Origin: Daucus carota subsp. sativus
Lineage: Eukaryota; Streptophyta; Magnoliopsida; Apiales; Apiaceae
Assembly: GCF_001625215.2 (NCBI RefSeq)
Contig: NC_030386.2
Span: forward strand, 35,839,296-35,903,295
DNA length: 64,000 bases
Reading direction: 5' to 3'
Position 1 is the stretch's first letter. Every line of letters begins with the position of its first letter. Position numbers and translations under genes: made by a program. Positions 25,701 through 64,000 of this stretch are shown piece after piece. Under the pieces are notes generated by a model. It saw only the letters and a list, made by a program, of their open reading frames with translations, was not told where the DNA came from and did no database searches.

Positions 25701-26784
25701 TATCTGTCTTTGCAATGCCATTCCCTTTTTTTGAATTAACTTGTATATAGGATGCCAGTTCAGCTAAAACCAAGAAAAGGTTCAATGTGTTTGATTTTTC
25801 TACTTTGTACAGTATCTGATGTTGATTTGGGTTGTTTTCAGGGGCTTGATTATGCATTAATGACAGGTGGAGATGTTGCGCCACTTGGTTCTCAAGCTGT
25901 TACGAAGATACACCAGTTGTTTGATTGGGCAAAAAAGTCCAACAGAGGGTTACTACTCTTTATTGACGAAGCAGATGCATTTTTGTGCGAGTAAGTTGGT
26001 TAGAGCCTAGTTTTTTCAACAATTATATAGTTGCTCACATTAGTTTTATTTTATTGCATTTGATCCGATGAAAATGTGATTTTTGAAGTCAGATCTATAT
26101 AGATAGTAAATTTTGCAAGAAATATTTTGTTAACATCAAATAAGTAAGTCTGTGATTGATATTGTGTCTATTTGCTATATATGGATATTTGATTAGTGGT
26201 ATTCACTTGCCCCTGCACATATATTATAGTCGAAGATTGGAGCTTTCAATCATTTCAACTTGGTTTTGGCTTATTTCAGGCGGAACAAAACCTATATGAG
26301 TGAAGCCCAAAGAAGTGCACTCAATGCCCTCCTTTTCCGCACAGGTGATCAATCAAAAGACATAGTCCTTGCTCTGGCAACAAACCGTCCTGGCGATCTT
26401 GATTCAGCAGTTGCTGATCGTATTGATGAAGTCCTAGAATTTCCTTTGCCTGGGGAGGATGAAAGATTTAAGCTTCTTAAACTTTATTTGGACAAGTACA
26501 TTGCACAAGCTGGGGCGAGGAAGCCAGGATTGTTCTCTAATTTGTTCAGAAAAGAACAGCAGAAGATAGAAATTAAGGACTTGACAGATGATATTTTGAA
26601 GGAAGCAGCAGCAAAAACAGACGGCTTTTCAGGAAGAGAAATAGCAAAGCTGATGGCTGGTGTTCAGGCTGCTGTTTACGGAAGTGAGAACTGTGTGCTT
26701 GACCCAAATCTCTTCCGTGAAGTCATAGATTATAAAGTTGCAGAGCATCAACAGAGAAAGAATCTTGCAGTGAAAAGTGCATGA
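22798..26784 (+). CDS. ATAD3: ATAD3-like mitochondrial AAA ATPase
   Basis: ATAD3 proteins are inner-membrane AAA+ ATPases linked to mitochondrial nucleoid and membrane organisation. Eight exons join in phase for 627 aa: 22798-23088, 23383-23478, 24253-24363, 24438-24747, 25008-25098, 25304-25634, 25842-25990 and 26280-26784. The start [20 protein letters not shown] precedes a Pro-rich stretch. A long charged coiled coil follows ([19 protein letters not shown] to [17 protein letters not shown]). Next is a hydrophobic segment, [17 protein letters not shown]. The AAA domain has Walker A GPPGTGKT near residue 392, Walker [10 protein letters not shown] near 449, sensor ATNRPGDLD, and a C-terminal [11 protein letters not shown] helix. 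Intron 3 (24364-24437, 74 bp) has a GC donor, CAG then GCATGT. The in-frame TTG codons upstream are not used; the ATG at 22798 fits. Confidence 0.94.
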
Positions 26785-27481: not shown

Positions 27482-27667
27482 TTCTAAATATTATTACATG
27501 TAATTAATTGAAAATAGAATGTTAGAAAAGTTATTTCAATCATTCATGATAAAGGGTATGGTCGACTGGAGAATTTCTAAATATTATTACATGTAATTCA
27601 TTGAAAATAGAATGTTAGAAAAGTTATTTCAATCATTCATGATAAAGGGGATGATCGACTGGAGAAT
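27482..27667. repeat. 93-bp tandem duplication
   Basis: Two adjacent copies begin with TTCTAAATATTATTACATG and end with GTCGACTGGAGAAT. They differ at only about three positions, indicating a recent duplication in the ATAD3-PPR spacer. Confidence 0.9.
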
Positions 27668-29125: not shown

Positions 29126-32100
29126 CTAGATACTCTGAGCTTTTGATCCAACTACAAGATTATCGAGGAAAGAAATTCCCAAACTCTTCATAGACTTTAG
29201 AATGTCTTCAGATTTAGGTTCCATGCCAACTGACTGGTACAAATGAACAGCTGCGCTCATAATAAACCTGTCTGGTTCAACTAAACCAGTAATCTTTTCA
29301 TAGAAAGAGATGCCTTCTTCCACGTGTCCATAGTCCATGTAAGCTCCAAGTAAAGCTCTGTAGCATGCAAGCTCAGGAATTAATCCAGCGCCTAAAATTT
29401 CTTCAAATACCATTGCAGCTTCCTTTGTCCTGCCCGTTTTTGCAAAGGCGTGTAGTAAGAGGTTAAAGTGAGCACAGGAAGGGGATATTCCATTCTTCCT
29501 CATTAATCTTATAGTTTCCTCTGCTTGAGAGTATTTAAGTCCCTTTGTATAAGCTCGAATAAGGGCAAGGTAAGTGAAGGAGTCTGGTGAGCAACCATCT
29601 CTTTGCATGGTTTCAAAAAGCTCTTCTGCTTCATGATGAAGTGTTGCAGTAGAATACACATTCATCATAATATTGTAACTCACCTACATTAAGAGATTAC
29701 CTATGCTTTTATATAATCTTAGTTTATCAACCATCGAGAGCACAGATAAATATTATGCTACCATTTATAGATTAAAAGACTAAAATGCATTAGCTAATGA
29801 AAAAACAATGTATTACTACCATGCATGCCACTTCTATGTAATATTTCAAGAACTCATTTAATATATTTAATCAGCTTCAACCTCTGGACTTGTATCTATC
29901 ATTTTTGATGTACCGTTGAGTTTGTAGATATTAAATATTTAAAATATATTGTTATTTAGGTTTTGTGAATCTGTACATAATTGACCTGGTACCAGAACTG
30001 ATGGCTCTAAAGATGTATATGTAATCTACCTACACACACACATAATATATGGTAGTTTTTCTTCTTTAGAGTTTAGACCATAAACTCTGGCACAATTCAT
30101 ACACATACCTGCCCAGGTTTTATTCCTTCTTCTCGCATTTTTCTAAATAGAAGGGATGCTTCATCACTTTTACCTGCAAAGAAGATAAAATCAAATTTCT
30201 TGGTATTTACAACAGATCGTAACAAAAATCTTTTACTAAAAAACCACAGCTGAACAAAGAACTCTCCATGCCTATGATTGTTTAACTGGTAATAAGTGGT
30301 CCTTATAACTCTAAAAGCCCAGTACAGCCCAGCAAGATAATAGATGTTACTCCTTATGTTCCATTTTTATTGTCCCTGTACCAATTTTGCGTGTCCCAAA
30401 AGTAATGTCCAGATATAATAATTTAATAAAAGAAATCCTCTAATACCACCAAACAATTTTAATTATTAATGCAAATTGAAATTGATTAGTAATTTTATTA
30501 AGGGGTAAATTTGAGGAAAAGATATTTTTTAGGAAGTTGTCAATTTATTTAGTTTTATGAAATGAATGGTGGATTTTTACAGGGGGGCAATAAAAAAGGG
30601 ACGGAGGGAGTACTAGACAGTAATATAGTCATCTCGAATCTACCTTGACCTCAATTTGCTTATATAGAAACTCATGTCAGACACTGAAAGTATAACTATC
30701 AGGAAAAAAGGCATTTAATGTATGATATGGGTGTAGTTTAATACATGTATATTTTGATGGACCAAGTGAGTAACTTTACCAGCTTTTCCATAATAGCATA
30801 TCATATTAGTGTATGCTTTCTCATCCAAAGCCACCCCCCTACTTTGAGCCATCTTAAATACCTCCACGGCTTTATCCAGATTTCGACCACGTCCATGCAC
30901 ACTGCACACAACATACACTGCTGCGTCAATTGCAAACGAGTATATTATGAACTATCTTCTTGATTGAACATTCTATTAAGGGTGACAAAGGCAGACAGAC
31001 ACCTCTTCTTCACATGCAAAATAAGTTTATTAACAAACCCAACCGCACTAGACAAGTTCTGCACTATGACTCCAGGCCACAGAATTCAACCATGAAGGTC
31101 AAGGTTTTACCTGATCATGGTGTTATATGTATGAATTGATGGAACAACGCCCAGAGAGAGCATGTGCTCATAAATGCTAGCTGCAAAATGCAATCTACCT
31201 GTGCACATTAAATTGGTCCACGTGTTAATCCAGCTTTATCCTCTCCTAATTTCCTCATAAGATACAAAATTAAAAAAGGAAAGATGGATGTAACCTGCAT
31301 CTAGCATCGCTTTGATGAAGGTATTGTACGCTACAGTATCAAGCTCCATATTATTACGAAAGCAGTCACGAATAACGTTCTCTGCTAGTCTATATTTACC
31401 TGTAAAAGGTTTCGTAATGTTATAGTAAACATATAAATAAAATATGTGTCATTTAGAACTAATAGCACTGATAAACCTTTTATGCATTCACGTGAGCCCT
31501 ACCCATTTCTGATAAGCCCGTATAATCATCACCACGTGAGATTTGAGATTACAGATGTTAGTCTTTGGTGTCAATTTCAAAAATACAAATAAGCTTCAAG
31601 CTACTCAAGTAAGCTCTTATAGATCACAAAGTGGTGCAGTAGGGGTCCATACATCGTAAAGAATCAATTGACTGATAGTGTTAATGGGTCACTGATGTTG
31701 TTTTTTGTAAGCTTAGAAATCAATGATTGAAGAATATAATGACTTGTTCACTAAGGACTGAGGGTCGCCCTGCGGACATTAAGACTACAGAAGACAAATA
31801 ACAGGAAGGGACTTCTTATATACATCTATAATCTTGAAGTTATAAGTAACAGATTTCCGTATACTCAAGTTGAACATAAATATACAAACTGTAGATGCAC
31901 CATTCTTAGTTCCTTACCACAGTCAGTCAAAACATTCACAAGCATGCTGATGGCTACAGCACCTAAATCATGGCCTTTTACAGTCTCTTCTCTGAAAAAT
32001 AGGTATGCTTCCTCTGATGTTCCACACTTGGCATACGCATCAATCATTGAACTGTATAAAAGTTTTCTAGCTTTAGATGAATCTGCCACTGCTGCAAAGA

Positions 32101-35100
32101 CTTCTTGTGCTTGTTTCAGCTTCCGTTGCTTTCCATACAAACTTATCATAGATGCACTTGCAACATCCTCCGGGGTGTAACCAAGCTTCAGTAGTAAGGC
32201 ATGCAGGCATTCCGCTTTTGATGCGTCTCCTGTATACATACCCATTTCAGATATCTAAAGTATATCATAGTATCTGCACGTTTCCCTGCAATTTTAGCAA
32301 GATCCTTGAAGAAATTATAATGGGAACACTTTTAACTTTTACGTAAGACTTTTTTTTGTTACTGACCTGCCCTGCCTTGGTATTATAAGTATTGGAGTTT
32401 TTCTTTTAATAGTATTTGTGTTATTGTTGGTTAAAACTTAAAACTTGGTATATCGAGTAATATAGTTATTACTTATATCTATTTTGAATTCATAACATAT
32501 ATAGATTAACAGCTATTATTTTTCATATATGAACGTTTCGGACGCCACAAAGCCATATTGTTGTGAAGGTCCTCAGGCACTGCAGCTCGCCTGGGCACCA
32601 TAACAACCTTGGGAATCAGCCAAAAATATCTGCTAATATTTTAATTGTGAAAAAGAAAATGATGGAACACTAAATAAACTATCAGATTCATGTGCATTCT
32701 TGCCTTCTTTAATAAAATTGATGATGAGTTGGCTAGCAACTGTCAAGCCATTAGGAGTGTTGAGCAGAAATTTGAGTTTTTCTTCTATTCCACTGCCATT
32801 GCCATCTGCCATATACAAACTAAGCATCATCCCAAAAGCCATTGTACCATGTGCATCCAAGGGCTCAAAAGAATCATCACCATCAGGCAATACAGATTCA
32901 CCATGCATAACCAGGGAAATTGTTTGTATAAATTTATTGTTCCTAAAAGATTCAATTGTATTTAAATCATCAATCAACTGTTCTGCATCCTTCAACATAT
33001 TCTCCTGGCAATATAACTTAATGACTGTCTTTAGAAGCTCCTCATCGAAATTTACCCCATCTTTCCTTACCTGAACAATAAAACTTTTTGCCTTGTCAAT
33101 CAAACTTAGTTTCATATACAAGCTGAGCATGTCTTTACAGGAACGAGCATCAGGAATCCCAGTCTTTGCCAGAGCTTGAAATGTACCCTCAGCAGCTGCT
33201 ACATCTTCTTTCATAACATTGCATTGCAATAAGACAATGAAAGCAAATCTTGAAAACAATATGTTTTTAGCACGCATTTCTTCCATAATACGCAAAGCTT
33301 CCTCAAAGTTTCCTGAATTAAGATGGACTTGTGTCATTGTTATATATGTTTTCTCATCAGTAAGTAAACCCAGTGTCTTAATCTCTCGGAAAGTTTTTTG
33401 AGCATCCTCGTATAGACCAAGTTTCCCATATATCCTAATTAGTAAGCCATAGATAACCTCATCTGCAGCTATTTTATACTTTCCCATTTCCAAAAAAAGG
33501 GAAAGAGCTCTAGAATAGTCCCTGTTTCTGTAGTGAAGGGCCAAAAGTGATGCACATGTGAAATTACTTGGTACTATGCCATGTGATCTCATGCTCCTAT
33601 ATAGTCTAAGTGTTTCATCCGTGTCACCCCTTTTGGCACTTAAACTTATTAGGAGGCTGTAAGTTACCTCCTCTGGTATAAAACTTAATTTTATCATCTC
33701 CCTGTAAGTTTCAAAGGCTTGCTCGGCTTGACCTTGTTTCACAAATGAGCTTATTACTACTGTATAAGTAAACTCATTTGGCACTACCCCCGTATCAACC
33801 ATCTGCCTCCACAACTCTGTGACATTAACATGGAGTGACTTTTTCTGCAGAGATGAAAGCATGAAATTGTAAACCGCAATGGTAAGAGATATCCCTCGTT
33901 CACGTACAGCAGAGTAAAATGACTCCATAGCCTTGTGACGTCCCCATCTAGCATATGCACAGAGCATGGTACCACAAGCAACTTCATCAGGCTCGCACCC
34001 TGATTCAAGCATCTCCAAGAAGGTCTCTTCTGCAAGCTTTATTTTCCCGACTTGGCCATACATACGTATCACAATTGTGTAGACAATAACACTAGGTCGG
34101 TAGCTTAACTGTTCAAGCACAATTCTAATATTACACCAAATTAATATTGTATATCGTTGATATAACTTGAGAATAAATAAGATGTCACCTATTATTCAAA
34201 TTAAAGACTTAAAAAAGGCGATATCACAATCCCAATTTTAAATAAAGAAGATGTGTACTGTGTAGAGTATTAATTCAGACCTTTAACCCAACTTTATCAT
34301 GTTACCTACATAGTGCAGTATTTGTGTTTCCTATATATCTTACTCTAGAAAATTGTTCAAAATATACAGTCAAATCTCAATAAACGAGATTAAATACACT
34401 ATTATGTTCAAAATTCCAATAAATTAATTATAGAACACCGCAGTACACAAAACAAGACCCACAATTCAAAATCACCACCCCATGTAAAAATCATCATAAT
34501 GTAAAACAACAACAATATCAAATATCTTAATCAGTTACATAATTACAGTAATATAACTGTAAACATACAACACGGAAACGAAACAAACCTGCAATTTCAT
34601 CCACCCGAAAAAATCCCTCACTTGCCTCCACCCCTTCTGCTCCTTCAACACAGTACACATTTCCCTAAAACTCAACACACTAACAAATCCCGCCATCACA
34701 ACCCTCATATCATACTCCCCTTCCCCTCTCCCAGCCAAACTCCTAACCCGCTTTATCGCAGCCACGACATGCTTCCCATACAAATGCCCATTCCTATCAT
34801 CCTCCAAATAGGCCACCATTTGCTCCGGAGACCTCTTGATCCACCTGGGCGTTTGAGCATTGGACCCCTGGTTCCTCCTCAGAGTGCTCAAGTACTGGGC
34901 CTTGCTCTTGATTATGCGACGGGCGTTGTCGTCGGAGAGGTTGTTCTTGGGGTTCTTGGACTTGGGCTTGGGCTTGTTGATGGAGTTGCCGTCGCTTAAG
35001 GACCATGGGTCTGGAGAGATGGCGGAGCAGGAGATTGTGGGCTTTGGGGGTTTGGGTTTTGATGGGGTTTGGGAGAAGGGGAGGGGGGAGATGAAGGAGG

Positions 35101-38019: not shown

Positions 38020-39743
38020 AAACAATATTTTACCCATACTTTTTGACTCAAATCGGACCTCATAATTTTACATTACAAGAATGATATGCAACCCCCTTCG
38101 TTAATGGTCGTGTAACTTCTTACCACCGCCGTTAAAAAACTCCTTTTACCTTTTTTTAGCTGCACATTTGGTTTTGTATCGATCAAATTTGACCAAAGTT
38201 TGACCGAAAAGTATTGATATTTTATCAATTGATAAAATAAAAAAAAAATAGATCACCAGAAATAACTTTTAATCTATTTTAAGATGTATTTTTAGTTTTC
38301 AAAAATAATGAAAGACTGACTTATAATCTTTGGTCAAAAATTAATCCGTTTGACAAATAAAAATAGAAAAGTTGCGACTAAAAAAGGACGAATGATTATA
38401 TTCAGGATAGATTAATATTTAATAAAATTATATGCATTCACAAATACACAATAGTTAAAAGACAAAATTGATTTTCAAATTTGAATGAATCATTAATTTA
38501 AACTGTCGGATCAACTCAGCATGTATATATTTTGTCAAAATCTCTGATTAAAATTTTGCAATAAATCATTGATGAATGAATGAATTGAAAACTAAAATAA
38601 TAACCTTCATCTCGCAAATTCTAAAATATATTATGTAAAATAAGTTCGGGATAAAATAAATCCAAGCATAGACTACATCTAATACAAATTCATCAAGTTT
38701 CTCCGATTATTTAAAAGTCAGTAAAATATATATAACAAAAGATAGATAACATCTGAATTATTTTTCGACGAATAAAAAGTAGGGTAAAAATGGCTTTATC
38801 TCGCTAATTTTTTTTAAAATCAAATTTGTACTTATATGTTATAATTTGATAAGTCGAAAATCTTAGTTTTTATGATGACTCGTTATTTTTAATACCTGAC
38901 TTGCAAAACTCATTAAAAATAATTTGGAAGACAATTTCATATATTTTGTATAATAATAATAAATTAAAACTATCAAAACTGAAATTTAATCATTTATAAA
39001 TAGTTTCTCATTCATAATAGTTGTTTCAAATTAAATCAAGCTTTAATATGAGGATATGGTCGTAGACATTCATTTCCTAAAAAAATACATTTATACCGAC
39101 AACCGCCTTGTCAAAAAATAAAAATACTTTTTTTCTGAAAAATTGGAGAAAAGAGTTTATACACGTGTCAGAAATATATTGGATTGAATTCCCACCGGTG
39201 ACGAGTCACACACACCCGTCTTCAACCCCTTCCCCTCTAGCGATACGATACATACACCGATCAATTTTGAATCAAAAATCACAAATCAATTTCCCCTAAT
39301 TAATTACTTGAATGCCTCAATTTTAATTCCAGAGCTTCTCGGAGCGAATCCGAGTCATCCAGACGGATTAAATCTACCAGGTATAAATATACGCATGTAT
39401 AAATTCTATAAGCCATATGAATTCTAGGGTTGCGTATCCGATTTTCTCGATTCGTCATTTAACTGAATGCAGTCATGTATGTATATGTTTATATATGTTG
39501 ATTTTTCATCGCGTTTAGTTATTTGTTGTGTTTACAGATCTTATTTTATTGATTGGAGCATATTTGTGGATTTCTTATTTATTTGTTATATTGCGTGTGT
39601 TTACCGAAATTGTGCGTATCATATAAGTTGAATTTGAGGGTTTATGCATTATTAGTTGCTAATATGATTGTATGTGTGAACTAATGGTTTTGATGGAGTT
39701 GAATTTGTTTTATGATGCAGTGTTGTAGTTGGATAGGTCAAAG

Positions 39744-42700
39744 ATGATGAGGTTACAGACGTACGCAGGGGTTAGCTTGATTGCTACCCTGGCGGTTGTT
39801 TATCATGCTTTTAGTAGTCGGCAGCAGTTTTACCCGGCAATGGTTTATTTATCAACTTCTAAGGTCAGTTTGGTGCTTCTACTAAATATGGGCCTGGTTG
39901 TGATGTGCATATTGTGGCAACTGACTAAGAAGATTTTCCTGGGGTCGCTCCGTGAAGCGGAGGTTGAAAGGCTTAATGAGCAGTCGTGGCGGGAAGTGAT
40001 GGAGATACTCTTTGCTATTACTATTTTCAGACAGGACTTTTCGGTTACTTTTCTTTCTATGGTCACGGCTCTTTTGTTGATAAAGGCTTTGCATTGGTTG
40101 GCTCAGAAGAGAGTTGAATATATTGAAACGACACCGTCAGTTCCCATGTTGTCTCATATTCGAATAGTCTCGTTCATGGGATTCCTTTTTCTACTTGACA
40201 GTCTCTTTTTGTATAATTCAGTGAAGTATCTAATAGAGACCCGCCAGGCATCAGTTTCTCTCTTTTTTGCCTTTGAGTAAGTTATTTTTTTTCTTTTACA
40301 CTATCCAGTTTTCTTAATTGAGCATATATGAATTATCGTTCTCTTCTTTAATAATTTTGAAACAATTTTTGCAATGTATGATCGTCTAAACCTTTAAGGA
40401 ACTTATAATTTAATATTGATCAAGATAAAAGATGTTAAGATTTCTTTTAGTGATGATATACCGAGTTTCATAAATAATACTGTTTGATTAATTTGGCGAA
40501 AAGAAATTAATTCCTATACTATTGATCATTGTAATGTTACTGGGTTTATTAGGTAATTATGTTTTTAATACTTTACCTTAAAAGGAAGCACTCCTAATGA
40601 GCAAGTAGCTTGTGAGGAAAGCCAGAAAGTAATACATTGGCCTTTCTGTAGTTATCTAACAATTTGTATTAACTGAAATTTTACAGAGGGATATATTTCA
40701 CTATCAAATATTTTTTTTTTCTTTTGTTTTTACTAGATACATGTCTCCTATATTTTTGTGAACAGCAATGGATACGGACTCCCTGATATAGGAACATATA
40801 ATTAATGAGTACTCTACTATTTCATTCACAATTAGGTGTTTAGTTGTAAGTTTGGCCATAAATTTGAGCTTTATCTTTTACTAAAATGATGATGATAGTT
40901 TAGAGTAATAGAATATGGCGGTTGTTTTGTGTATGCCATTTTTCACAAGCAGATATTATTACTTCATATAGAATGACTGTATAAGTGGTTAAAGAAAGTT
41001 AACAAGAAAATGGGAGAGACCTGAAGGTGCCAATTTCTTTAGCTGGATTGCCTCACATTTCCTTCTGTTGCTTAAACTAATGATACTTGTTTAGTTTATG
41101 ACTGTTGTAGTTGTTTTGTCGATGTACGACTCGTACTTAAAAAGTTAAAATGCATAATTTACTTGAGATTTTGGAAAAAAATATATACTGATGACTGACA
41201 ACTTCCCAATTGTTGGCTTTCTTACTCTGAGGTTGGATGTTTTCATACTCGTAGAGATTTCCTTTTCGTTTCTTTCTCACTGCTTGTTTTTCTGGATTCT
41301 TGTTCTACTAAATGTTGTGTATACTTATTATATATGCTGGTTTTGAGGTGTTCAACATTACTTTGGTCACATCACATATTATTTTTAGCTGTTTAAGAAG
41401 ATCGCCTTAAAAAGCACTTTGCTGGTCTCAGGATTGCCATAGTATTGATTTATGGTGTGGTAAATTTGGATTTCAATATTTGTAAACATTGTCTTTCAGG
41501 TACATGATATTGGCAACATCAACGGTATCAATATTTGTAAAATATATATTCTATGTCAGCGACATGCTTATGGAAGGACAGTGGGAAAAAAAGGCCGTCT
41601 ATACATTTTATTTGGAACTGATTCGGGACTTACTGCACTTGTCTATGTACTTGTGTTTCTTCCTTGTGATTTTCATGTAAGTGAATATGTTAAATTTTGT
41701 CTTGTTTCTGTTAATTGTAGTGCACATATTTATAGAGGGGCAAGAGCCAAATAATTTATAATTTATTTCTTTATTATTCAAATAATTGTAGGTTGTAGCT
41801 ATATGTCCTCCTTCACACTTGGTGCATGTTTGGTCATTCACGTATCTAGCTCTCATCACTAGAGTAGCACTTGTTTCCAATTATATTATAAAATCATATG
41901 ACTAGTTATTCCTTGTAGTTGTGTTCGTCTGACAAATATTGTGTATAGTTTGTAAGTGACATTTGTTTTCTTCAGGAACTATGGTGTGCCTCTTCATTTG
42001 ATTCGGGAGCTTTATGAAACTTTCCGTAACTTCAAAATCCGTGTTGCTGATTACATTCGTTACCGGAAGATCACTTCCAACATGAATGACCGTTTTCCAG
42101 ATGCTACACCAGAAGAGATCGACTCGTGAGTACTTTCTAATTAAGTCTCTTGCATGTCGATACTCTCAAAATCTTCTCTCTGATGTATATTTTTCTCTAC
42201 ATTTTTATATCTGCGCAGTAGCGATGCAACCTGCATTATCTGTCGTGAGGAGATGACAACAGCCAAGAAGTTAATCTGTGGTCATCTTTTCCATGTTCAC
42301 TGCCTCCGGTCATGGTTAGAGAGGCAACACACTTGTCCTACTTGCAGAGCCCTTGTTGTACCATCTGAAAATGGGGCAAGTCCAGCTGGTTCCCATGCTA
42401 ATGTTCACCAACACGGTATTGAAAAAACTCTATCTGGAGCCTTACTTTAACATCTTTTATATTTGCTTTTACCTTAACCTATGGATCAAATTATTCAAAT
42501 CACTACTTCACTTGAGGATTCAAAGTTTTAGTAGACATTTTTATGTTAACAAGTTTACTGTCAAGATGGAGAAAAAGATTTTCTCTACATGACTGCTTGG
42601 CATCGATAACATTTCAGCATTTTTTATAAATGATGATTATTGTAATGCAAACTTTAACAGGGTTTCTAAATCCCCAGTTTTGCTTATATGAAAGGAAAGA

Positions 42701-51400: not shown

Positions 51401-54400
51401 TCACTTTCTACTCCTGATTTTATACCTCTAAAGCCATGCCCTTTGACTAGTGAATGGATTATGATTGAAAGCATGTGTGCATCATAAAATCAAGTATTTA
51501 CCTATACGTTTCAAGCTACATGTTGAATTTACTATATATATCTTCTGTCTTGTTTTTTCTCTCAGCTGGAAACACTTCTTAAATTCTTCCCCACGCCAGC
51601 GTTTCGGAATCTGACTCTCCAGTGTTTGACAGAGGTATATTTCGAATTAAAGGCTCACTAAAAACATCCAAAGCCATCAGCATTCTGCACCTTAGAATAT
51701 GTGCATATAGTTGATTGCCCTCCTGTGATACTTTACACAGGTAGCAGCTCTTAGTTTCGGAGATTTCTATAATAGCCAGTATGCTAAATTGTATGGCATA
51801 TTCATGCTACAATTGCAGGCAAGTAAAGTTTATTTTGTTGGTGCTACATGTTTATGAATTCATGTTAGTCTGTTTGCTGACTATATACTTTACCAACTTG
51901 CTTACAATTGATAATGTTTACTTGTTCTCTAGGCTGTTGTCCCTTCCAGTTCAAAAATACCTGAAGCCTATGCAAATGGGTCTAGTGAGGAACAGGTTTT
52001 AATTTGAATCAATAAAATCATACTTAGTCCTCAAGCTCATTATAATTATGTGCTACTGATATGTGTCCAAACTTTTTCATCAGGCATTCATTCAGAACTT
52101 GGCGTTATTCTTCACCTCGTTTTTCAAGGCAAGTTTATTTTTTTGGTAACTTATTATAATTTTATGAAGGGAATTTTCTTCTCTGTATACCAAGCTCATG
52201 AAAAGTGACGAGTTAGCTGCTTGTATGTTCAAGCTATGCGAATTGTTAAGCCTTTGCTAAATTTGATCTTATTGTGATTTCAATTGAAGAATGCAATCCA
52301 AACTAAACCTGACAATAAGTACTTTCATCGCCATTCTTCTTCGTTTTAAAATAGACACCAACATTGTAACTGTCCTGTGTTGGATTTTTTTTTTTTTTTT
52401 TTTTTTTGGGGGGGGGGGGGGGGGGTTGTTTTTAGACTTCCAATTTCCCTGAAGTTGAAGTTTATATGGTTATTGATGAATCATTATCATCTGCTTAATG
52501 CAGTGCCATATACGAGTTCTTGAGGCAACACAGGAAAATATTACTGCTTTGCTTGCCGGTCTAGAATATCTCATTGACATTTCATACGTGGATGATACTG
52601 AAGTTTTTAAGGTATGGTTTTTGCTTTGTGTGTTTGTTCGTTGTTTAGCGGCTATCGAGAACTTCACGTGGAAAACAATCACTGATATTAGTGTGCTGGT
52701 CTATAGTCTTCTTTTAATTACTGTCATGATAAGACGTGTTTTAAATGTTGTTATTGATCATCAATGCTGTTGCACTGGCAGGTGTGCTTGGATTATTGGA
52801 ACTCCTTGGTATCAGAGCTCTTCGAGGCACATCATAACATGTATAATCCTTTAGCAACAGGAAGCATAATTGGACTGCAGGTTTGATTCCTCCATGCTAG
52901 TGAATAAAATATGTTTATCTTGTTCACAATTCCTTGTAGTTGTTCAAATTCAATTTTCTTTTGCAGTTGTGTTTGATTACCTATAGCAATTCCATTGCGA
53001 TAAGTACATCACAGGACCTCTAATCTTGTGTTAGCCTTGTGTTACTGTCAGAATTAACTTTGCATGCATCTGTATTCTTCCATTAATCTAATAGATTCTT
53101 GCCTGTCATATAGTATCTGTCTGCTCCTAGTATTGTATCTAATAGATTCTTGCCTGTCAACCTTAATTTCATACGTGCGAGTATTGATTTATATGCATAA
53201 ATTATTTTACTTGCAGCGAACTGTATCTCTTATACAAACATGTTCGTTTCTATTATGTCACTTATTAATGTCATTTTTTATCTACTATCTGAAGCAGATG
53301 CCATTGCTTAATCGTGTTGCCGGTGGTCTTGGCTCGGAAATTTTACAGCGCCGCCAACTTTATGCGATGCCAATGTCCAAGTTGAGATTGCTTATGATAT
53401 GTCGCATGGCAAAGCCCGAGGAGGTTCTAATTGTTGAAGATGAGAATGGTAATATTGTCCGTGAAACTATGAAAGACAATGATGTCCTCGTGCAATACAA
53501 GGTAGTCATACTTCTATGTGTGCTTGAAGTTGTCTCTGTATGATTTCCAAATTGCAGGCCTCCTTTATTTTGCTATAATGCTTTTTTGATAATCTTTGAA
53601 ATTGGTAATTGATATTCTGCATAAAACTATGGACAATGGCGTCCTTGTGCAATACAGGGTAGACAATACATACTTGTAAGCTAGGCATGCCCTTGTCCTT
53701 GTATAAATTATCTGGGTAATAGGGTCATAGACTTTAGCACTTGCCCTTAATTTTGTAGTGCTTCATATAAATAAGATTTTTTAAAGTTATCTGATAAAAA
53801 AAAACAGTATGAAGCTTAGGCTTAGATCTCGCTATTCCTGCTTATTGATGTAAATGTTTGTTATTGGTATTTTATGTTTTATTTACAGTATGCATAATTT
53901 TGTTATTCTATTCTGTTTATGATATTTAAAAATTGTCTTTTATACAGATAATGAGGGAAACACTTATCTACTTGTCCCATCTTGACCATGAAGATACTGA
54001 GAAGCAGGTGCATATTTTTTTATAAATGTAACTGAATGCTGTTTAATTATATATGATATGTTTTCTTAATCTAAATATCATTGTGTTGATCAGAGCCAGC
54101 GTTGACTAATCTGTTACTGGACACTACTTAATGCAAAATTGCAATTGCTGCACTATTACTGTTGTGTATAGGACTTTTATTTTTGCATCACAAATGAGCA
54201 TGAAATATTCATCTACTAGATTTTCCCTATTAGTTATTTGTACTGCCAGATAGTACATAGCATATATATTTTTTAAATTAAACGAAAATAAACAGAATAG
54301 TAGTATAATGGCATATGGTCTTTCACGTTAAGGTTCTTTCGGCTTCTTACAAAGACCAGAGATTCTTTAAGTATCCTGGTTCATTACCGTCCATAAACAA

Positions 54401-57400
54401 GATTTGTAAATCAGTCGTTCGATTTGTAATATTTGTATTACAATAAAGAAATGTGTGATGTACACTAATCTGTATCTGATCTACTCCTAATAGACACTTG
54501 AATTGGTGATTTAAGTGTCTTCTTCATAATTTAGGTTCCTTTTTATCCTTAATAATATGGCTGATGGCCTGTTGCACAAAATTGAAGTGATTAAGCTGTT
54601 CTAGTGTCCTAGTTATTTGTTTGAGTATATCTAGTTGTGATCTCTATTCAGATGCTGAGAAAATTGAGCAAACAACTAAATGGAGAGGATTGGACTTGGA
54701 ACAACCTGAACACATTATGTTGGGCAATTGGATCAATATCTGGGTCCATGATGGAAGATCAGGTTTGATTATCTTATTTCAGAATATGGTTTTTAAATAT
54801 TTCTCCCGTTGTATCATCTAAAGCTTAAACAATCTAAGTATCTAACTACTGTTTTAAGTCCAATAATTATTATTTATCTATTTTTTAATTTTTTTTGTCA
54901 GGAAAATAGATTTCTCGTTATGGTGATTCGGGATTTACTGAATCTATGCGAAGTAACAAAAGGAAAAGACAACAAAGCTGTTATTGCTAGTAACATTATG
55001 TAAGAATTGTATATCAGTTGTAGTATATCATAGTGGCTCCATCCTCATCTTCTGTGAACTAGATGATTAAAAATTTACTTACATTTGAAAACCTATGGCT
55101 TTTGTTCAGGTACGTGGTTGGCCAGTACCCAAGGTTTCTTCGTGCCCATTGGAAGTTTCTCAAAACGGTTGTCAACAAGTTGTTTGAATTCATGCATGAA
55201 ACACATCCGGGAGTTCAGGTTTTTAATAAAGCTCAAGCAATTTTCTTTTTAATTTTCGGTGCTTTCATTTATTTTTTTTCTTCCAAATGCTTAAAGGTAC
55301 AAATACTTATATCCCAAACCGAACTTAAGATTTTTCTTCTAAACAATGTTGTTATGATATATATAGTGTGAGTATCATATTGATAATGTAAAATACAGTC
55401 CTGAAGAACGAGCTCCACAAGTCTTATGCATACATGGTCAGGGGTCGTATAAAGTCATGTTCTTTGCTTAGTGTGTACAAAGTCGTTCTGCTTTCTGTTC
55501 TGTATTGCTGGTCACAAATATTATCTTATATTTCATAATAGTGGGTAGTGGATGGTGCAAGTAAATTTTAAGAATACTGGTTTGGTTTCAGTCAAAATAT
55601 AACATTTACCAAAATGTTATGTTAGTGAATGACAAAAAATCTGACATGGAAGTAGAGAATTTACACAAATAATCGATGTAGAGTAAGTTAAAGACTTGTA
55701 GTCACACAAATAATTGATGTAAAGTAAGTTGTAGACTTTTAGTATTAAATAGTTAATTAGTATAAATGTTATTCGACAAAATGGTCATACATTTTGGTGA
55801 GGAGCTACTGTTACTCCTTTAAAAATATGTTGCGACTTGGAATATTGACAGACTTTAGGTTTTGTCGCAATTTTCTGTGGGCATTAGACTTGATCTGTTT
55901 CTTTTGGATCATTGTTTTCTGAGTTACTATTAGATTTTCTTTTGAGTTTGGGGGCTGCAATATTGTAGTTTTTTTAAGCTTTATTTATAATATAACTTCT
56001 CTTTTGTTATTTATGGTGGTCTGCACCACATTATTAATTTACTGTAACTGCTGAAATTTCGTTTACAATTTGACATTTTCTCGTTGATAATTTATAGGAT
56101 ATGGCCTGCGATACTTTTTTGAAAATCGTTCAGAAATGCAGGCGTAAATTTGTTATTGTTCAGGTAATATATTTTGTCTCAAGCATTATTATCTATTGGT
56201 TTCTTGGTTTGTTATCTATTATTGTAAATTCCTTGTTCCATGTGCAACATGTGGAATACTAGATGTGAACTCAACGCTAAAGTCCAACTACAAAGTGCAC
56301 AAATAATTCATTTTTTGAGGGACTGGGGTTGCTTGTGGACTGGACTGTTAGAATTCTTCCACTATAGCTTATGTTATCTTCTCTGCAGGTTGGGGAGAGT
56401 GAACCGTTTGTGTCGGAACTTTTAACAACACTTCCTACAACCATTGCAGATCTTGAGAATCATCAGATTCATTCATTTTATGAATCTGTAAGGCAGTTTA
56501 TTATTCATATCTTTCTTATATATATATATATATTTATAATCCATCTCAGCCTGTTAGCATCACATTATTAAATATTCTGTTTATAGGTTGGTAATATGAT
56601 TCAAGCAGAATCTGACCCCCAAAAGAGAGATGAATATCTGCAGAGGCTAATGGAGCTTCCTAATCAGGCAAGTTTTGAACCCCCCCCCCCCTCCCATTTA
56701 CATGAACAGGTGTAGAAATTATATTTGTTAAGCATCTGTTTTAAGTATTGAACTTTATGCAGAAATGGGCTGAGATTATAGGCCAAGCACGTCAAAGTGT
56801 TGAATTACTAAAGGACCCAGATGTTGGCCGGGCTGTGCTTAATATATTGCAGGTATGTATTGGTTTTCAGGATGGTTTCTCGAGCTATTCAAGAATACTT
56901 GTTCATGTATTACAGACGCAGTAGCCATTAGCTAGATTGTCCTATTAACAAAGTGTTGTGCATATTTTGAATTAGTAACGAGACTCGATATAGTACCTCT
57001 ATTATTAATTTTATCTTCTTTTTTTGAATAATAATTTTATTTTATTTGTTTGGCATTGGCAGACTAATACAAGCGTTGCTGCCTCCCTTGGAACTTATTT
57101 CTTGCCACAAATTTCTCTGATCTTTCTGGACATGCTTAATGTGTATCGGTATGTCAATACTAGTATAGACATCCTATTCCAACTATGAACAACGCTGATT
57201 AAATAATTTTCAATTTTTACTCATGAGATTTAGATCCATAATCTTTTATTGGGTTTCAACAGAATGTATAGTGAGCTCATATCAGCCAGCATTGCTGAAG
57301 GAACACCTTATACTTCGAAGTCATCTTATGTCAAACTCTTACGGTGAGGTCAACTAACAAAATTTTGTTCTAGATTGTTTTGTATGTTTGAACCCTTCTC

Positions 57401-60400
57401 TTAAAAAACTGTTTCTTTTTGTTCAATCAGTTCTGTAAAGAGAGAAACTCTTAAACTCATCGAGACATTTCTAGACAAGGCGGAAAATCAACCACAAATT
57501 GGGAAGCAATTTGTGCCTCCTATGATGGACCCTGTTCTTGGTGATTATGCTCGGAATTTGCCAGATGCTAGAGAATCTGAAGTTTTATCACTTTTTGCTA
57601 CAATAATAAACAAGTATGCCCATGGTTGTCTTTTTTTCTTCTTCCTCATTTTCTGTCTGTTTCATTTTGACATGATTTGGTTTACTTTCTGTATTCAGGT
57701 ACAAAGCTGCAATGATTGAGGATGTCCCTCACATATTTGAAGCTTCTTTTCAGTGTACACTTGAGGTGAGTTTTAATGCTGCTTTAGACATTTAGTTACA
57801 AGTTAGTACTTTAGTCTCTTGTGTCAAATAGATAGCCTTTGAAAGTGAATTTTACTCATTTCAAACATGTACACATGTTCACCCGATGTTGATTAGTACC
57901 TCGGCATGTATTCTGTATAGTTTTAGTACTGTTAACCATGCATATAGCATTCTCTTGCATCAATTAAAAAAAACCTAAAAAGTTATCACAGAAGGCTTCT
58001 TCTATGCAAGTGAGTATTATTTGCTGTGGGTATTAGCTACCTAGTGCAAGGCAAGCCTAGTTGGCAACTTGAGGTTCTGTATCTGAACATGGGGAGTACA
58101 CATGGTTGAACATTCCACACAGACTTGTATGTGGATTTTGCTCCACTCAGTACCATTAGAGGTTGTCTGTTGTATTGAACTTGTAGTTAGCTATGTTTGG
58201 TCTGTTAGCCAACTCGTTTTTTTTTTTTAAGTAGGTATTACATATCCCTTTTCTCTTTATTGTGAAAGTAATCTAATTTACGACCTCACGGAGATACTAG
58301 ACTGTAGCTTATCTTGAAAATTTTTTGTATTGCAACTGTGGGCTGCTTTTGGCAAGGCATATCTGTTTATTCCATTAATGCGATGCAACTTACTGAGCTT
58401 ATCTTGCTTTATAATAGATGTTATTCTTTTATTCTCCTAAAAATGTCTGCAAAGAAAGGTTGCATGTTATTATTGTTTTCAGTTCCAATAATATATATTT
58501 TGCTTTATATATTTCTATTCCGCCTTTACCATAGTAATAGCCATATTTCTATGAAGAATGTAGTATAGTTAATCGTTATGTCCGACATGTATCAGGAATT
58601 TGTATATGTTTTGGCCTAAGATCCTTGGTTCTGGGATCATTGGGCTGAGAAGTTGTAGTGGATTGATTTTTTGTGGTTTATACAAGGGTTGCACAGTTAT
58701 CTTCCAAACATTCAACTTATATCTGGGTTCTTCATCCCAATGGACTTATCAATGATTTTCCTTATTGTATTCCAGATGATCACGAAGAATTTTGAGGACT
58801 ACCCTGAGCATCGGCTTAAGTTCTTTTCTCTGCTCCGTGCAATCGCTACACATTGTTTCAAGGCATTAATTCTTTTGTCAAGCGAGGTTAGTCTTTGGAG
58901 ATGTACCACAGCATACTTCTTTCAGTTTATTAGTTTGTAAAGGACAACAAGTTTACTGATTATGTGAAAACCAAATACAGTATAGCAAGTTTTGCCTATA
59001 TTATAAATTGTCTAATGTTGCTTATGTTCTGGATTAGCAACTTAAACTTGTTATGGATTCGATAATATGGGCATTCCGGCACACGGAAAGGAATATAGCT
59101 GAAACAGGGCTTAACCTATTGTTAGAGATGCTGAAGAATTTCCAGGTATGATTTCTGCGGCCAACATCTACATCTACTTAACATGGAGGGAGAGATGACT
59201 GTTTAGTAATTCAGAGTGTGTATGTGAATATTACTTTTTTATGGAACTTACATTATTAATAACACCTTGACAGGCTACAGACTTCTGCAACCAATTCTAT
59301 CGCAGTTACTTCTTGACTATTGAGCAGGAAATTTTTGCGGTCCTAACAGACACATTTCATAAACCCGGGTTCAAGTTGCATGTGGCAGTGCTTCAGCACT
59401 TGTTCTGCCTGGTACTGTTTCTTTCATATTTTTGGTTCCAATTTTGTTGGAATTATGTTCACCAGGGTTGTAATTGCACCTGTTCAGGCAGATTCAGGCT
59501 CACTAACTGAACCATTGTTGTAATTGTGCGTTTTCAGGTAGATTCAGGTTCATTAACCGAACCTTTGTGGGATGCATCAACGGTTGCTTACCCGTATTCA
59601 AGTAATGCTATGTTTGTTCGTGAGTACACAATAAAGCTGTTGGGCTCATCATTCCCGAATATGACAGTTGCTGAGGTACATGCTTATCAAATGTAGATGA
59701 AATGTTATGTTAATTGTGAACATGGACTAGACTGTTAAAATATATTTGATCTTTTCAGGTGACTCAGTTTGTCAGTGGGTTGTATGAATCAAGAGCTGAT
59801 CTTTCCACATTTAAGAACCACATACGAGACTTCCTCGTCCAATCAAAAGCATTTTCAGCTCAGGTATCTCTTGTGGCAATGCAATACTTCTTTTGTCAAC
59901 AGAAGCCCTCTTTTCATGGAATTGGAATTTTTTTTCTTAATTTTTATATGGCACAGGCTTTGTAATTTTGTAATTATGGTTTAATGCACTATATATGAGC
60001 ACATATCCGAACCCTTTAAAGGAATAGAACACTTTGAAGATTACATGCATTAAAATTCATGAATTTTGATAGGAGGATATATATTTATGATCTACGTGGA
60101 ATTTTATTTGACCTACTTCTCGTATGATATATTTTCAGAAATTAAAGGGGATTACAGAACTTGGGAACATGAATGATAATTCTAGATTGTAAAATGTTAT
60201 GTTAGAAGCCCCACACGTGTCCTCGATATGTTTTGATGCTGTTAATCTGTGGAGTTACATGAATCTGTGTTGTATACAGGATAACAAGGATCTTTATGCG
60301 GAAGAAGCTGCTGCTCAGAGAGAAAGGGAACGGCAACGAATGCTTACAATTCCAGGGCTTATTGCACCTAATGAGATACAAGATGAAATGTTGGATTCGT

Positions 60401-60402
60401 AA
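48433..60402 (+). CDS. XPO1: Exportin-1 / CRM1 nuclear export receptor, complete
   Basis: XPO1 carries leucine-rich-NES cargo out of the nucleus with Ran-GTP. I trace 32 in-phase coding exons for 1,078 aa. The first are 48433-48537, 49843-49959, 50095-50187, 50287-50358, 50458-50565, 50661-50743 and 51243-51381. The next are 51566-51634, 51741-51818, 51933-51995, 52084-52128, 52504-52611, 52782-52880, 53298-53501, 53948-54007, 54652-54762, 54902-54999 and 55110-55218. Then come 56098-56163, 56389-56487, 56587-56667, 56763-56852, 57063-57148, 57263-57343, 57431-57613, 57699-57765, 58776-58886 and 59038-59145. The last four are 59274-59411, 59538-59675, 59759-59863 and 60280-60402. The start is [16 protein letters not shown] and the end [22 protein letters not shown] (Cys near residue 504, codon 54718-54720) is the NES-groove cysteine equivalent to human Cys528. 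Introns 9, 11 and 21 have GC donors. It is full length and looks functional. Confidence 0.97.
52385..52425. repeat. T23-G18 homopolymer tract in XPO1 intron 11
   Basis: Twenty-three T followed directly by 18 G, about 80 bp before the exon 12 acceptor. Exact lengths are uncertain in any assembly. A shorter C12 run lies at 56680-56691 in intron 21. Confidence 0.9.
53091..53159. repeat. Direct repeat in XPO1 intron 13
   Basis: ATCTAATAGATTCTTGCCTGTCA occurs twice about 50 bp apart. It is noncoding. Confidence 0.8.
55664..55742. repeat. 41-bp imperfect tandem duplication in XPO1 intron 18
   Basis: Two copies of a unit starting CACAAATAATCGATGTA with five or so differences. They lie between ACCAAAATGT (about 55607) and its inverted copy ACATTTTGGT (about 55788), which may mark an eroded inverted-repeat element. 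Confidence 0.65.
59468..59567. repeat. 50-bp tandem duplication across the XPO1 exon 30 acceptor
   Basis: The unit runs from TTGTAATTG through the pyrimidine tract and TTCAG into the first bases of exon 30 (GATTCAGG, then CACTAACTGAACC or CATTAACCGAACC). The downstream copy is the real exon start at 59538. The upstream copy ends its exon-like part at TTGTTGTAA. Confidence 0.85.
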
Positions 60403-61276
60403 TTGTTTTAAATTGTGCAGAGAAGTGCTAGTTTCCCTAATTTGTACCATCGTCTTTCATGGGATTTTCGGATGCTGACAGAACCAATGGTTGGCAGGTG
60501 TAGAGATTTTTTAGTTTATATCGTGCAGGAATATAGTGGTAGACCTTGTGTCGTATGGGGTTTCGTTGTAACCGGAACAAAGTTAAGAAGTTAATTATCA
60601 GAATAGGGATTATGTATACAAATTTAGCAGGTTTTGCAGATTATAAAAATCCTGTTTAGAAATTTTCTTCCTGGATTGCTTGCTGAAAAGGTTTATTATG
60701 CATATATATTTGCATAATATAGGATTTTTAATGTGGATGGATTGAGGAAATTTTGGTTTCTTTTATGTTTGACTCGTATCTGAGTTTTATATTTTCTTCA
60801 TTTTAAACGGTTGCGGGAATACCTCTCCTCTGTACATAGGTGTTCCGTATTCTTTATGAAACAAATAAAGCGGGTAGAGTCTGTGGAACAATGATCGGTA
60901 TTTTTGCTTCATTAGCTAAAACTCTTTATTACATTAGCTAAAACTCTTTCTTCAATCTCGAAGGAGTAACATTTGAGAAATATGCAACTGTTTGGGCGTC
61001 GTTAGTTTATCATGGATAATTGAAAAAACTTTTTTACATTTATTAACAAATTCTATATTGATGTTAAATGTGGGTTTTTTCAAACATTATAGTTGAATAG
61101 AATATTTTAAAATTCAAAGTGTTTTTTAGGTAAAAAGATTAATTTATATAATCCTTTAACTCTCTTGATTATCTGGATGAAATGTTGAGAGGATTATAAT
61201 TCCTTTAAACCTTCTCTGAGAAGAACACTACTGTTAAAATTCATAAAGGTCTTTTTATTTTATTCCTTTAAACTAG
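60403..61276. other. Convergent intergenic region: XPO1 and the chimeric F-box gene
   Basis: Contains both 3' UTRs. ATTAGCTAAAACTCTTT is repeated at about 60911 and 60935. The right half (60990-61240) is AT-rich with no recognised element. No gene is seen. Confidence 0.55.
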
Positions 61277-63149
61277 CTAAATTGTTGTTTGATTCTTTTG
61301 ACATCTCCATGTGAGCTGCTTGATACTTCCATCCTCCAAGCTAAATACACCCATATCAACTCCAGTCTCGTTGCTAATTGAAGAAATATGATCCGTGAAA
61401 TAAATAGAATTCCCTTGCCAACCTTGAGTATCCAAAACCGAAAAAGACAGAGAATGATCACCACCAAGAAATAGACTACGATCTCCCAGAGAATCCACTT
61501 TCACCCATCGTCTGTCATCAAAATTATATGTAAAAACATCAAAGTACTTAGTTGCATAAACCTGCTGACCATTTTCAAGAAGACTACCTATAATCCTTGT
61601 AACAAGAAGAATATCAACCCCCGATTCTACCAAATAAAGTATAATATAATTATTGACCCAAGGACGCCAGTAAATTTCTCTCGGAGGAATGTTACGAGTC
61701 ATCTCGCTAAAACGAGGTGAATCAATTGTCGATGCTAACTTGGAGGTCCATTGAAAATCTAAAGCTTTTCTGACACATGCTGCTTCAAGGGAATAGAACG
61801 ACGAAGACGTCAACGGGGCCTCGATCCACTTGTTGTTTTCAGGATGATAACTATCCTGCAGCAACAATTTGACTTTATTACACATTAGGAAAATGACTCC
61901 AAATCTGCCTCCGGAACGAATGGGATCTGATGTGAGACGAGTTCGATAAAATTTTCTGATAAGCATATAATGTGGAAGAGTATCAGAAGGAATAACAATC
62001 TTCCTAGCTTCAAAACAATAAGGGTTGAAGATAAATACAGAAGATTGGCGTTCTTCATCCACAACATGTAATATCAACCACCCTTTTGAACATCCAATAC
62101 AATAAATATTTAAATCACCCCAGAAGTTGTTGAACTCATGGTGTAGTTTCTGACGAGCAAAGTTGAAAAAACAACATCCCCTGTTGTCTGTTGTTGACCA
62201 GATCAGATATGGAGGCTGTGAAGAAGGATTAGAGATAAGACATAAATTCAAAACAGCTATTTTCCATGAACGACATACGTGTTTGAAGCGAATAATGTCA
62301 AAACAAGTCATCCTCTTTATAACAGACTCCAAAATATCAGTATGAAGATTGGCCCAATCTGGTGAAGAAGCAGAAAGCTTCCTACGTTTGCTTGGAATAG
62401 TGTAGAAGGGTTTCATGCTTGGGTTTATAATCCTATCAATATGCAACTGCACACCACGAAGGACTTCTAAAATAAACTCATTGGTTTGGCAGGGAACCTT
62501 TGTTACTTGAAAGATATGTGAACCAAGTTTAGGCTCTGCTAATCCTACACTCAATTTGGAATTGTTTCCCTCCTCCGGTTTGGGGAGGGCAAGTACCAAA
62601 AATCTGTGCAACTCGTCAGTCATTTGACCTATAAATTTAAAAAATATAATTAGAAACATAAAAATTTGTGAAACTTCAATTCAAGCAATCAGCAAAAATT
62701 AGTCAAAAAAGTATGTCACACAAATCATAAATAATCACAACATCAGTGACATTCATATATCTACATGCCCCCTATTCATAAAAATTATATCTTTATCTTT
62801 TATATCATCAAAATCAAACAAAACAGAACTTTATTCAACTTGGGGAGTTGAGAATCATAAAAATCAAAACTTTATCTTTACAATAAAAAGTAAAACTTTA
62901 TCAAGTAACTAAAAATAAACATACAATTATAGAAATACCTAAAGAGAAAGCAGTGATTTGATTTAGGGCGTGGAGGGCCGATTGAAAAGGATCGAAAGCC
63001 ACGAGCTTTACAACTTTGCTAAACTCTTTGAGGTCGCTCACGCAGTTCCGAACAGCGTCAGTATTCTTTCCGATGTCTTCTGATTCATATTCATGGCAGA
63101 GAAACAGAGAATACCCTAAAGCCGCCTGGTAGAGCAGATACAACACCAT
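61277..63149 (-). CDS. Chimeric protein: NOP56 N-terminal region + F-box + DUF295 (KIB-like)
   Basis: Two exons, 62939-63149 and 61277-62628, join in phase across a GT-AG intron of 310 bp for 520 aa. Residues 1 to about 138 match the start of NOP56, the box C/D snoRNP core protein: MVLYLLYQAALGYSLFL, GKNTDAVRNCVSDL, KVVKLVAFDPFQSALHALNQ, MTDELHRFLVLALPK, GLAEPKLGSHIFQ and PCQTNEFILEVLRGVQLH. The NOP56 coiled coil and Nop RNA-binding domain are absent. A basic linker (SKRRKL, about 150-155) leads into an F-box at about 160-200 (DWANLHTDILESVI, FKHVCRSWKIAV). A DUF295/KIB-type C-terminal domain follows, ending LGDRSLFLGGDHSLSFSVLD, GNSIYFTDH and GVFSLEDGSIKQLTW. The ATG at 63149 is exactly the NOP56 start; the frame continues upstream only from a GTG. 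The function is unknown; I infer an SCF adaptor. Confidence 0.85.
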
Positions 63150-63592
63150 CTTAGCTGAGACTTGAGAGAGAACAACGGAAGAGAGAATCTCGCCGAGAAA
63201 CGACTGCACTTCTTTTTTATTATTACACTATAATTATAATCATATTATCTCCTCGATACCTAAATTTGATATAGGCCGGGGACGAACTACTCTCAAGTCT
63301 CAACCCATAGATCGATCAGTGTTTATCACTTTTTTCAGGAGGACGGGTTCTAGTTCTACTCGGATTTTAAAACAAAAAAATTGGATATTCAATTGAAATT
63401 GTAAAATACTATTTTTTGAAACATGTATTTAACTCAAATTTCTTATATTTTTTAATATTCAAAAAATGTAGAGTAAAAATATAATAAACAAATGAAATAC
63501 ATTAAAAAAAAAACCTCTCTCCCTGGCCAAGAATACTCTCTCAGCAATCTCTCTCTGTGCTTTGATCCAACTGTTAAAACAGAAGGTGGGTG
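63150..63592. promoter_or_regulatory. Divergent promoter region between the chimeric F-box gene and ARFB1
   Basis: Only 443 bp separate the two start codons, so the two genes must share or abut promoters here. The segment is AT-rich with a CT-rich stretch just before the ARFB1 ATG (about 63515-63560). No clear TATA box could be assigned. Confidence 0.5.
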
Positions 63593-63649
63593 ATGGGACA
63601 AGCCTTTCGCAAGCTCTTTGACACCTTCTTCGGTAACACTGAGATGCGG
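63593..63649 (+). CDS. ARFB1: ARFB1-type ADP-ribosylation factor, exon 1 only
   Basis: ARF GTPases control vesicle budding; the plant ARFB class acts at the plasma membrane or Golgi. The exon encodes MGQAFRKLFDTFFGNTEMR, 19 codons, ending at a GT donor (CGG then GTATCT). Gly2 is the N-myristoylation site and the amphipathic helix follows. This sequence is characteristic of ARFB1B/ARFB1C (from memory At5g17060 and At3g03120). The P-loop exon lies beyond the right edge; 63650-64000 appears to be intron 1 only. In Arabidopsis this gene also lies close to XPO1, which supports the call. Confidence 0.8.
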
Positions 63650-64000
63650 GTATCTTTCCATCACTTTTTTGTTATGTAAACACCACTGCATTCCTCATCA
63701 TTCTGCTCAACTCTGTGTATATATATGTGTGTGTATGGCGAAATGTATTACAACTATTACAAATCACGCATTTGAAATTGGAGAATTCGAGAGATTTATG
63801 TTTAGTGTGAGACTCATTCCGATAATTTTCGACAGTAGATATAGTTATTCAGAGGTCCAAGATTAGGTATTCTCAAAATTTGTTGTGGATTTGATAAATG
63901 TTTTGATCACATGGCGATTAGGTAGATAGATTGCATTAATCGTATGCTTCTGCTTACAACGATAATCGTTAACTGTATTTAGCAAATTAATAATATATTC

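What the first reader, a model, noticed from the sequence alone, without database searches (positions are those of the whole stretch)
61277..63149. Intact chimera of the NOP56 N-terminal region with an F-box/DUF295 protein
The first ~138 residues follow NOP56 from its start methionine through the NOP5NT domain and the GLAEPKLGSHIF segment, then switch without a break into an F-box and a DUF295/KIB domain. In archaea and yeast the NOP5/NOP56 N-terminal domain binds fibrillarin, and F-boxes bind SKP1. The inferred product would join a nucleolar docking module to an SCF ubiquitin-ligase adaptor. It has dropped the RNA-binding Nop domain. I know of no described plant protein with this order. The frame is open and a conventional intron splits the NOP56 part, pointing to DNA-level fusion rather than a retrocopy.
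Basis: partly seen in the sequence, partly recalled or inferred. Interest (0 to 1): 0.88.

Follow-up and report, generated by a model that had tools for sequence, protein, structure and literature searches.

The report
NOP56 head fused to F-box protein
A plant gene joins the front end of a ribosome-building protein (NOP56) in one unbroken reading frame to a protein-destruction adaptor (an F-box protein of the KIB/DUF295 type); the fusion is plain in the DNA, but nothing here shows that it is made or what it does.

Summary
On the minus strand, exon 1 (63149..62939) and exon 2 (62628..61277), split by a 310-nt GT-AG phase-1 intron, encode 520 aa. Pfam finds NOP5NT (4-69), F-box (162-201) and KIB1-4 beta-propeller (244-500), all above cut-off. 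Residues 2-138 match NOP56 of solved structures, NOP58 far more weakly. The junction lies inside one stop-free frame of 467 codons, so it is not two genes joined by annotation. The F-box half has its own Met (142), 20 residues before the F-box.

The NOP56 half has drifted: NOP5NT scores 62 bits against 78-92 for three true NOP56s, one recalled. Its differences are mostly conservative, but the tests for constraint are weak and lean on a recalled Arabidopsis sequence. Transcription, plant relatives, the ancestral intron position, dN/dS and binding could not be tested: no plant genome or RNA data are held.

Best reading: a DNA-level fusion that gives an F-box/KIB protein a NOP56-derived N-terminal domain. 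Fibrillarin docking and a nucleolar SCF ligase remain conjecture.

The parts
62939..63149 (-). Exon 1: codons 1-70 and the first base of codon 71; NOP5NT domain (residues 4-69, 63140..62943)
62629..62938 (-). Intron, 310 nt, GT-AG, phase 1
   Evidence: sequence; not tested against transcripts
61277..62628 (-). Exon 2 including the stop codon; holds the end of the NOP56 homology, the junction, the F-box and the propeller in one frame
62426..62628 (-). NOP56-type sequence after NOP5NT (rest of codon 71 to residue 138)
   Evidence: matches end at residue 137-138
62357..62425 (-). Junction and linker, residues 139-161, with Met142 (codon 62416..62414) and an NLS-like KRRK at 151-154
62237..62356 (-). 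F-box domain, residues 162-201
   Evidence: E 1.7e-6
61340..62110 (-). KIB1-4 beta-propeller (PF03478), residues 244-500, profile positions 20-242 of 242
   Evidence: E 1.9e-28

Best explanation
A DNA-level copy of the 5' part of a plant NOP56 gene, through an intron to about codon 138, came to lie directly in front of an F-box/KIB (DUF295) gene, in frame with it and close to what looks like the F-box gene's old start codon (Met142). The result is one two-exon gene for a 60-kDa protein: a NOP56-type N-terminal domain without the Nop RNA-binding part, then an F-box, then a KIB propeller. Shown: the gene structure, the open frame, the domains. Inferred: the mode of copying (from the intron), that the protein is made from the NOP56-derived start, and that it acts first of all as an SCF substrate adaptor (F-box to SKP1/ASK, propeller to substrate) with the NOP56 head as an accessory domain that may still pair with fibrillarin. 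The fibrillarin step is the least certain.
For: Gene model with canonical splice sites. Three domains above Pfam cut-offs. NOP56 rather than NOP58 as the source. Junction inside one 467-codon open frame; 0 internal stops against a shuffle mean of 32. The halves differ in third-position GC, 0.457 against 0.330. Differences from recalled Arabidopsis NOP56 are conservative: mean BLOSUM62 +0.19, reached by 0 of 400 neutral simulations that put all divergence on this branch. 24 of 32 cross-kingdom columns kept against 58 of the other 104 (one-sided hypergeometric p 0.039). F-box proteins with DUF295 preferred ASK1-2 in a two-hybrid survey (PMC3499479, passages); KIB1 is an F-box ligase (PMC12111011, passages). 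6zdt holds fibrillarin and a 168-residue Nop56 N-terminal chain.
Against: No transcript or relative was seen. NOP5NT scores 62.4 bits against 78.2, 91.8 and 82.8 (last one recalled). 8 of 32 columns shared by human, yeast and recalled Arabidopsis are changed, among them E to L at 70 and R to Q at 131. With half the divergence on this branch, the neutral BLOSUM maximum (0.56) exceeds the observed value and 18% of runs stay stop-free; Fisher two-sided p is 0.064. None of the promoter motifs that I recall as usual for nucleolar genes (telo-box, TGGGC) occurs in the 851 nt upstream.
Confidence: 0.45

Rival explanations
1. The F-box/KIB protein, translated from Met142, is the only product that matters. 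The NOP56 fragment serves as promoter, leader or intron-bearing 5' UTR, or is a passenger not yet broken.
For: Met142 lies 20 residues before the F-box and directly after the end of the NOP56 homology. The NOP56 half is diverged and has lost conserved residues. A neutral passenger stays stop-free in 18% of runs if half the divergence is its own.
Against: Start codon, splice sites and frame of the NOP56 half are all intact, and its differences are conservative. With all divergence on this branch only 1.5% of neutral runs stay stop-free (indels were not modelled).
Confidence: 0.33
2. The whole locus is a young, fast-evolving F-box gene on its way to being a pseudogene, with no stable function in either half.
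For: F-box genes of narrow distribution often evolve under relaxed constraint like F-box pseudogenes (PMC3030570, passages). The F-box reads LH where LP is usual (recalled consensus). The NOP56 half is diverged.
Against: No stop or frameshift in 520 codons; the propeller profile is covered from 20 to 242 of 242 and the F-box is above its cut-off.
Confidence: 0.15
3. An assembly error joins a NOP56 locus to an F-box locus.
For: No raw reads could be inspected.
Against: The window holds no N. The join is in frame and close to a Met that fits an F-box start. The NOP56 half is more diverged than true NOP56s, unlike what a false join to the parent gene would give.
Confidence: 0.05

Closest known systems
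NOP56 (Nop5/56/58 family), core box C/D snoRNP protein
   Same: Residues 2-138 align with NOP56 from near its start through NOP5NT to the RGVR.H segment
   Different: The coiled-coil and Nop RNA-binding parts are absent; conserved residues are changed; an F-box and propeller follow
F-box/KIB (DUF295) proteins, such as Arabidopsis KIB1
   Same: F-box followed by the PF03478 propeller, profile covered 20-242 of 242
   Different: A 138-residue NOP56-type domain stands in front; no sequence match in the PDB at E up to 1
F-box genes that captured foreign domains, such as the F-box::HTH genes of Caenorhabditis (PMC12062965)
   Same: A multicopy F-box gene that gained an unrelated domain by genomic fusion (passages)
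   Different: The donor here is a cellular snoRNP gene, not a transposon; a plant, not a nematode

Membership tests
F-box/KIB (DUF295) proteins | F-box domain above the curated cut-off | tested here: met
   28.1 bits against 20.5
F-box/KIB (DUF295) proteins | KIB1-4 beta-propeller after the F-box | tested here: met
   100.1 bits against 27.4
F-box/KIB (DUF295) proteins | Binding to SKP1/ASK in an SCF complex | not testable with these tools
   Needs a binding assay; family behaviour only from passages
NOP56 (Nop5/56/58 family) | NOP5NT domain | tested here: met
   59.1 bits in the whole protein against 27; lower than true NOP56s
NOP56 (Nop5/56/58 family) | Nop (snoRNA-binding) domain | tested here: not met
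   Not among the 4 Pfam matches at E up to 1; no further NOP56 piece in the window by tblastn with recalled Arabidopsis NOP56. So it is not a NOP56
NOP56 (Nop5/56/58 family) | Fibrillarin binding by the N-terminal domain | not testable with these tools
   6zdt shows that such a complex has been solved, but contact residues were not mapped

The most novel reading that the evidence does not exclude
A plant lineage evolved a dedicated nucleolar SCF adaptor: the NOP56 head docks on fibrillarin in competition with NOP56, and the F-box and propeller bring a ubiquitin ligase to box C/D snoRNPs or to a client held there, tying rRNA methylation or ribosome assembly to protein turnover.
Probability: 0.12. 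Interest if true: 0.82.

Novelty: new variant of a known kind. Interest (0 to 1): 0.5.

Why it matters
If the chimera is expressed, a conserved ribosome-biogenesis domain has been recruited as a possible targeting module of an E3-ligase adaptor, and it becomes directly testable whether SCF ligases act on fibrillarin or box C/D snoRNPs in plants. If it is not, it is one more instance of the rapid birth and death of F-box genes.

Tried and rejected
Own-genome search for NOP56: no genome is held for this window. Relatives: genome contigs with the NOP56 half (44 pattern matches, none confirmed) and with recalled Arabidopsis NOP56 (47, none confirmed); viral contigs with the NOP56 half (10, none confirmed) and with the exon-2 product (no match). 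These collections are bacterial, archaeal and viral, so this says nothing about conservation in plants.

AlphaFold2 of the exon-2 product as a single sequence gave mean pLDDT 33.3 and was set aside; no fold search was run. The PDB search with the F-box/KIB half gave nothing at E up to 1.

Transposon capture: of 10 inverted-repeat pairs in 60400-64000, two flank the gene (18 nt at 78% and 15 nt at 87% complementarity); they are too short and imperfect to count as terminal repeats, though their chance rate was not computed. Tandem duplication: at 60 nt or more the only direct repeat in the window is at 27482-27667, and tblastn with the fusion found only itself at E up to 1.

A codon-usage score favoured the true frame among the three forward frames in every segment tested, but a reverse frame beat it in exon 1, in the whole NOP56 part and in the linker, so I do not use it. 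Third-position GC for exon 2 was taken out of frame; one search replaces it.

The upstream reading frames 63452-63694 and 63459-63671 had no Pfam match at E up to 1, and 50 residues of the first had only 3 PDB matches at E 0.31-0.89.

Full report
What is there. The gene lies on the minus strand: exon 1 63149..62939 (211 nt), intron 62938..62629 (310 nt, GT-AG, phase 1, 22.6% GC), exon 2 62628..61277 with the stop; 520 residues. Pfam at E up to 1 gives NOP5NT at 4-69 (E 5.5e-16), F-box at 162-201 (E 1.7e-6), Beta-prop_KIB1-4 at 244-500 (E 1.9e-28; the family formerly called DUF295, old name recalled), and Kelch_6 below its cut-off. Residues 1-155 match 8 distinct PDB sequences at E up to 0.01, 7 NOP56 and 1 NOP58; the best E is 1.7e-16, the NOP58 match 3e-5, and the NOP56 matches stop at residue 137 or 138. 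So the first 138 residues are NOP56-type and what follows is not.

It is a fusion, not two neighbouring genes. Exon 2 is part of one stop-to-stop frame of 467 codons (61277..62680) that holds the end of the NOP56 homology, the junction, the F-box and the propeller. No stop codon could end a separate NOP56 fragment. The spliced frame has 0 internal stops; 2000 base shuffles gave a mean of 32 and a minimum of 17, and the other five frames hold 23 to 41. The halves differ in third-position GC (0.457 for residues 1-138, 0.330 for 139-520; 0.393 over eight other open frames of the window), which fits different origins but does not prove them.

How it probably arose (inference). The NOP56 half keeps an intron, so that half is unlikely to be a retrocopy. 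F-box/KIB genes are often intronless (recalled), so the F-box half says nothing here. Met142 follows the NOP56 homology after three residues and stands 20 residues before the F-box; an NLS-like KRRK begins at 151. The simplest picture is a 5' piece of NOP56 set just in front of a whole F-box gene. A recalled Arabidopsis NOP56 aligns on to about residue 144, so the break lies somewhere in 139-145. Whether the intron matches one in plant NOP56 could not be tested. Two short inverted-repeat pairs flank the gene (18 nt, 78%; 15 nt, 87%), which I take for chance. The promoter motifs that I looked for as recalled marks of nucleolar genes (telo-box, TGGGC) were absent from the 851 nt upstream.

Is the NOP56 half under constraint? 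The evidence leans to yes but is weak. Against a recalled, unverified Arabidopsis NOP56, 82 of 136 aligned residues are identical. Of 32 columns identical in human, yeast and recalled Arabidopsis, 24 are kept, against 58 of the other 104; one-sided hypergeometric p 0.039, Fisher two-sided p 0.064. The 54 differences are conservative (mean BLOSUM62 +0.19; 23 of 54 positive). In 400 neutral runs with all divergence on this branch none reached that mean and 1.5% stayed stop-free; in 400 with half of it on this branch 18% stayed stop-free and the BLOSUM maximum (0.56) exceeded the observed value. The 24 kept columns lie inside the simulated range (mean 19.7, maximum 28). Ordinary divergence between plant NOP56s accounts for an unknown part of this. 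Without the recalled sequence: of 49 columns identical in human and yeast the fusion keeps 27; recalled Arabidopsis keeps 32. The NOP5NT score is 62.4 bits, against 78.2 (human), 91.8 (yeast) and 82.8 (recalled Arabidopsis). Lost conserved residues include E to L at 70 and R to Q at 131.

What it would do. In an Arabidopsis two-hybrid survey, F-box proteins with DUF295 preferred ASK1-2 (PMC3499479, passages), and a review describes KIB1 as an F-box ligase that ubiquitinates BIN2 (PMC12111011, passages). The N-terminal domain of archaeal Nop5 recruits fibrillarin (PMC7089733, passages). PDB entry 6zdt holds fibrillarin (chain A) and a 168-residue Nop56 chain (chain B), a fragment somewhat longer than the one kept here; its contacts were not examined. 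The likeliest role is therefore an SCF substrate adaptor with an accessory NOP56-type head. Fibrillarin docking is possible but unproved, and the changed residues count against it to an unknown degree.

Surroundings. Of ten other open frames scanned, eight had Pfam matches and fit a plant: cellulose synthase family (20254-22014, with a RING-type zinc finger at 17814-18728), PPR proteins (29126-29683, 32633-34195), a synoviolin-like ligase (39729-40280), a VHS protein (7041-7604), an AAA ATPase (26230-26784) and CRM1/exportin (53058-53543); two had none. A plus-strand reading that stops at 60402 looks like the exportin-1 C terminus (recalled likeness), which would make it the fusion's convergent neighbour, about 870 nt tail to tail. 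Only 851 nt upstream of the start codon are in the window.

Novelty. Paper searches for NOP56 with F-box (5 papers, 25 listed of 1,072 holding at least two terms), NOP5NT with F-box (none), Nop domain, F-box domain and domain architecture (20 listed of 97), and F-box with nucleolus, fibrillarin and SCF (5 papers) listed no protein of this order; I saw listings and abstract openings. The main text of a plant F-box survey holds no word beginning with 'Nop' (PMC3030570, find). UniProt and InterPro could not be searched, so an annotated relative may exist. Capture of foreign domains by F-box genes has precedent (PMC12062965, passages). I rate it a new variant of a known kind: the DNA fact is firm, the biology open.

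Noticed in passing
window 53058-60402, + strand: CRM1/exportin match at 53058-53543 and a reading that stops at 60402 and resembles the exportin-1 C terminus (likeness recalled); it would be the convergent neighbour of the fusion gene.
   Followed up: partly
window 27482-27667: Two tandem copies of a 93-nt unit, 97% alike.
   Followed up: no
window 63452-63694, - strand: Open frame of 80 codons upstream of the fusion (MERYPHLSVTEEG...) with no Pfam match at E up to 1 and no convincing PDB match; perhaps an exon of another gene cut by the window end.
   Followed up: partly
window 62356-62237, - strand: The F-box begins with LH where the usual F-box has LP (consensus recalled); it might weaken SKP1 binding.
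   Followed up: no
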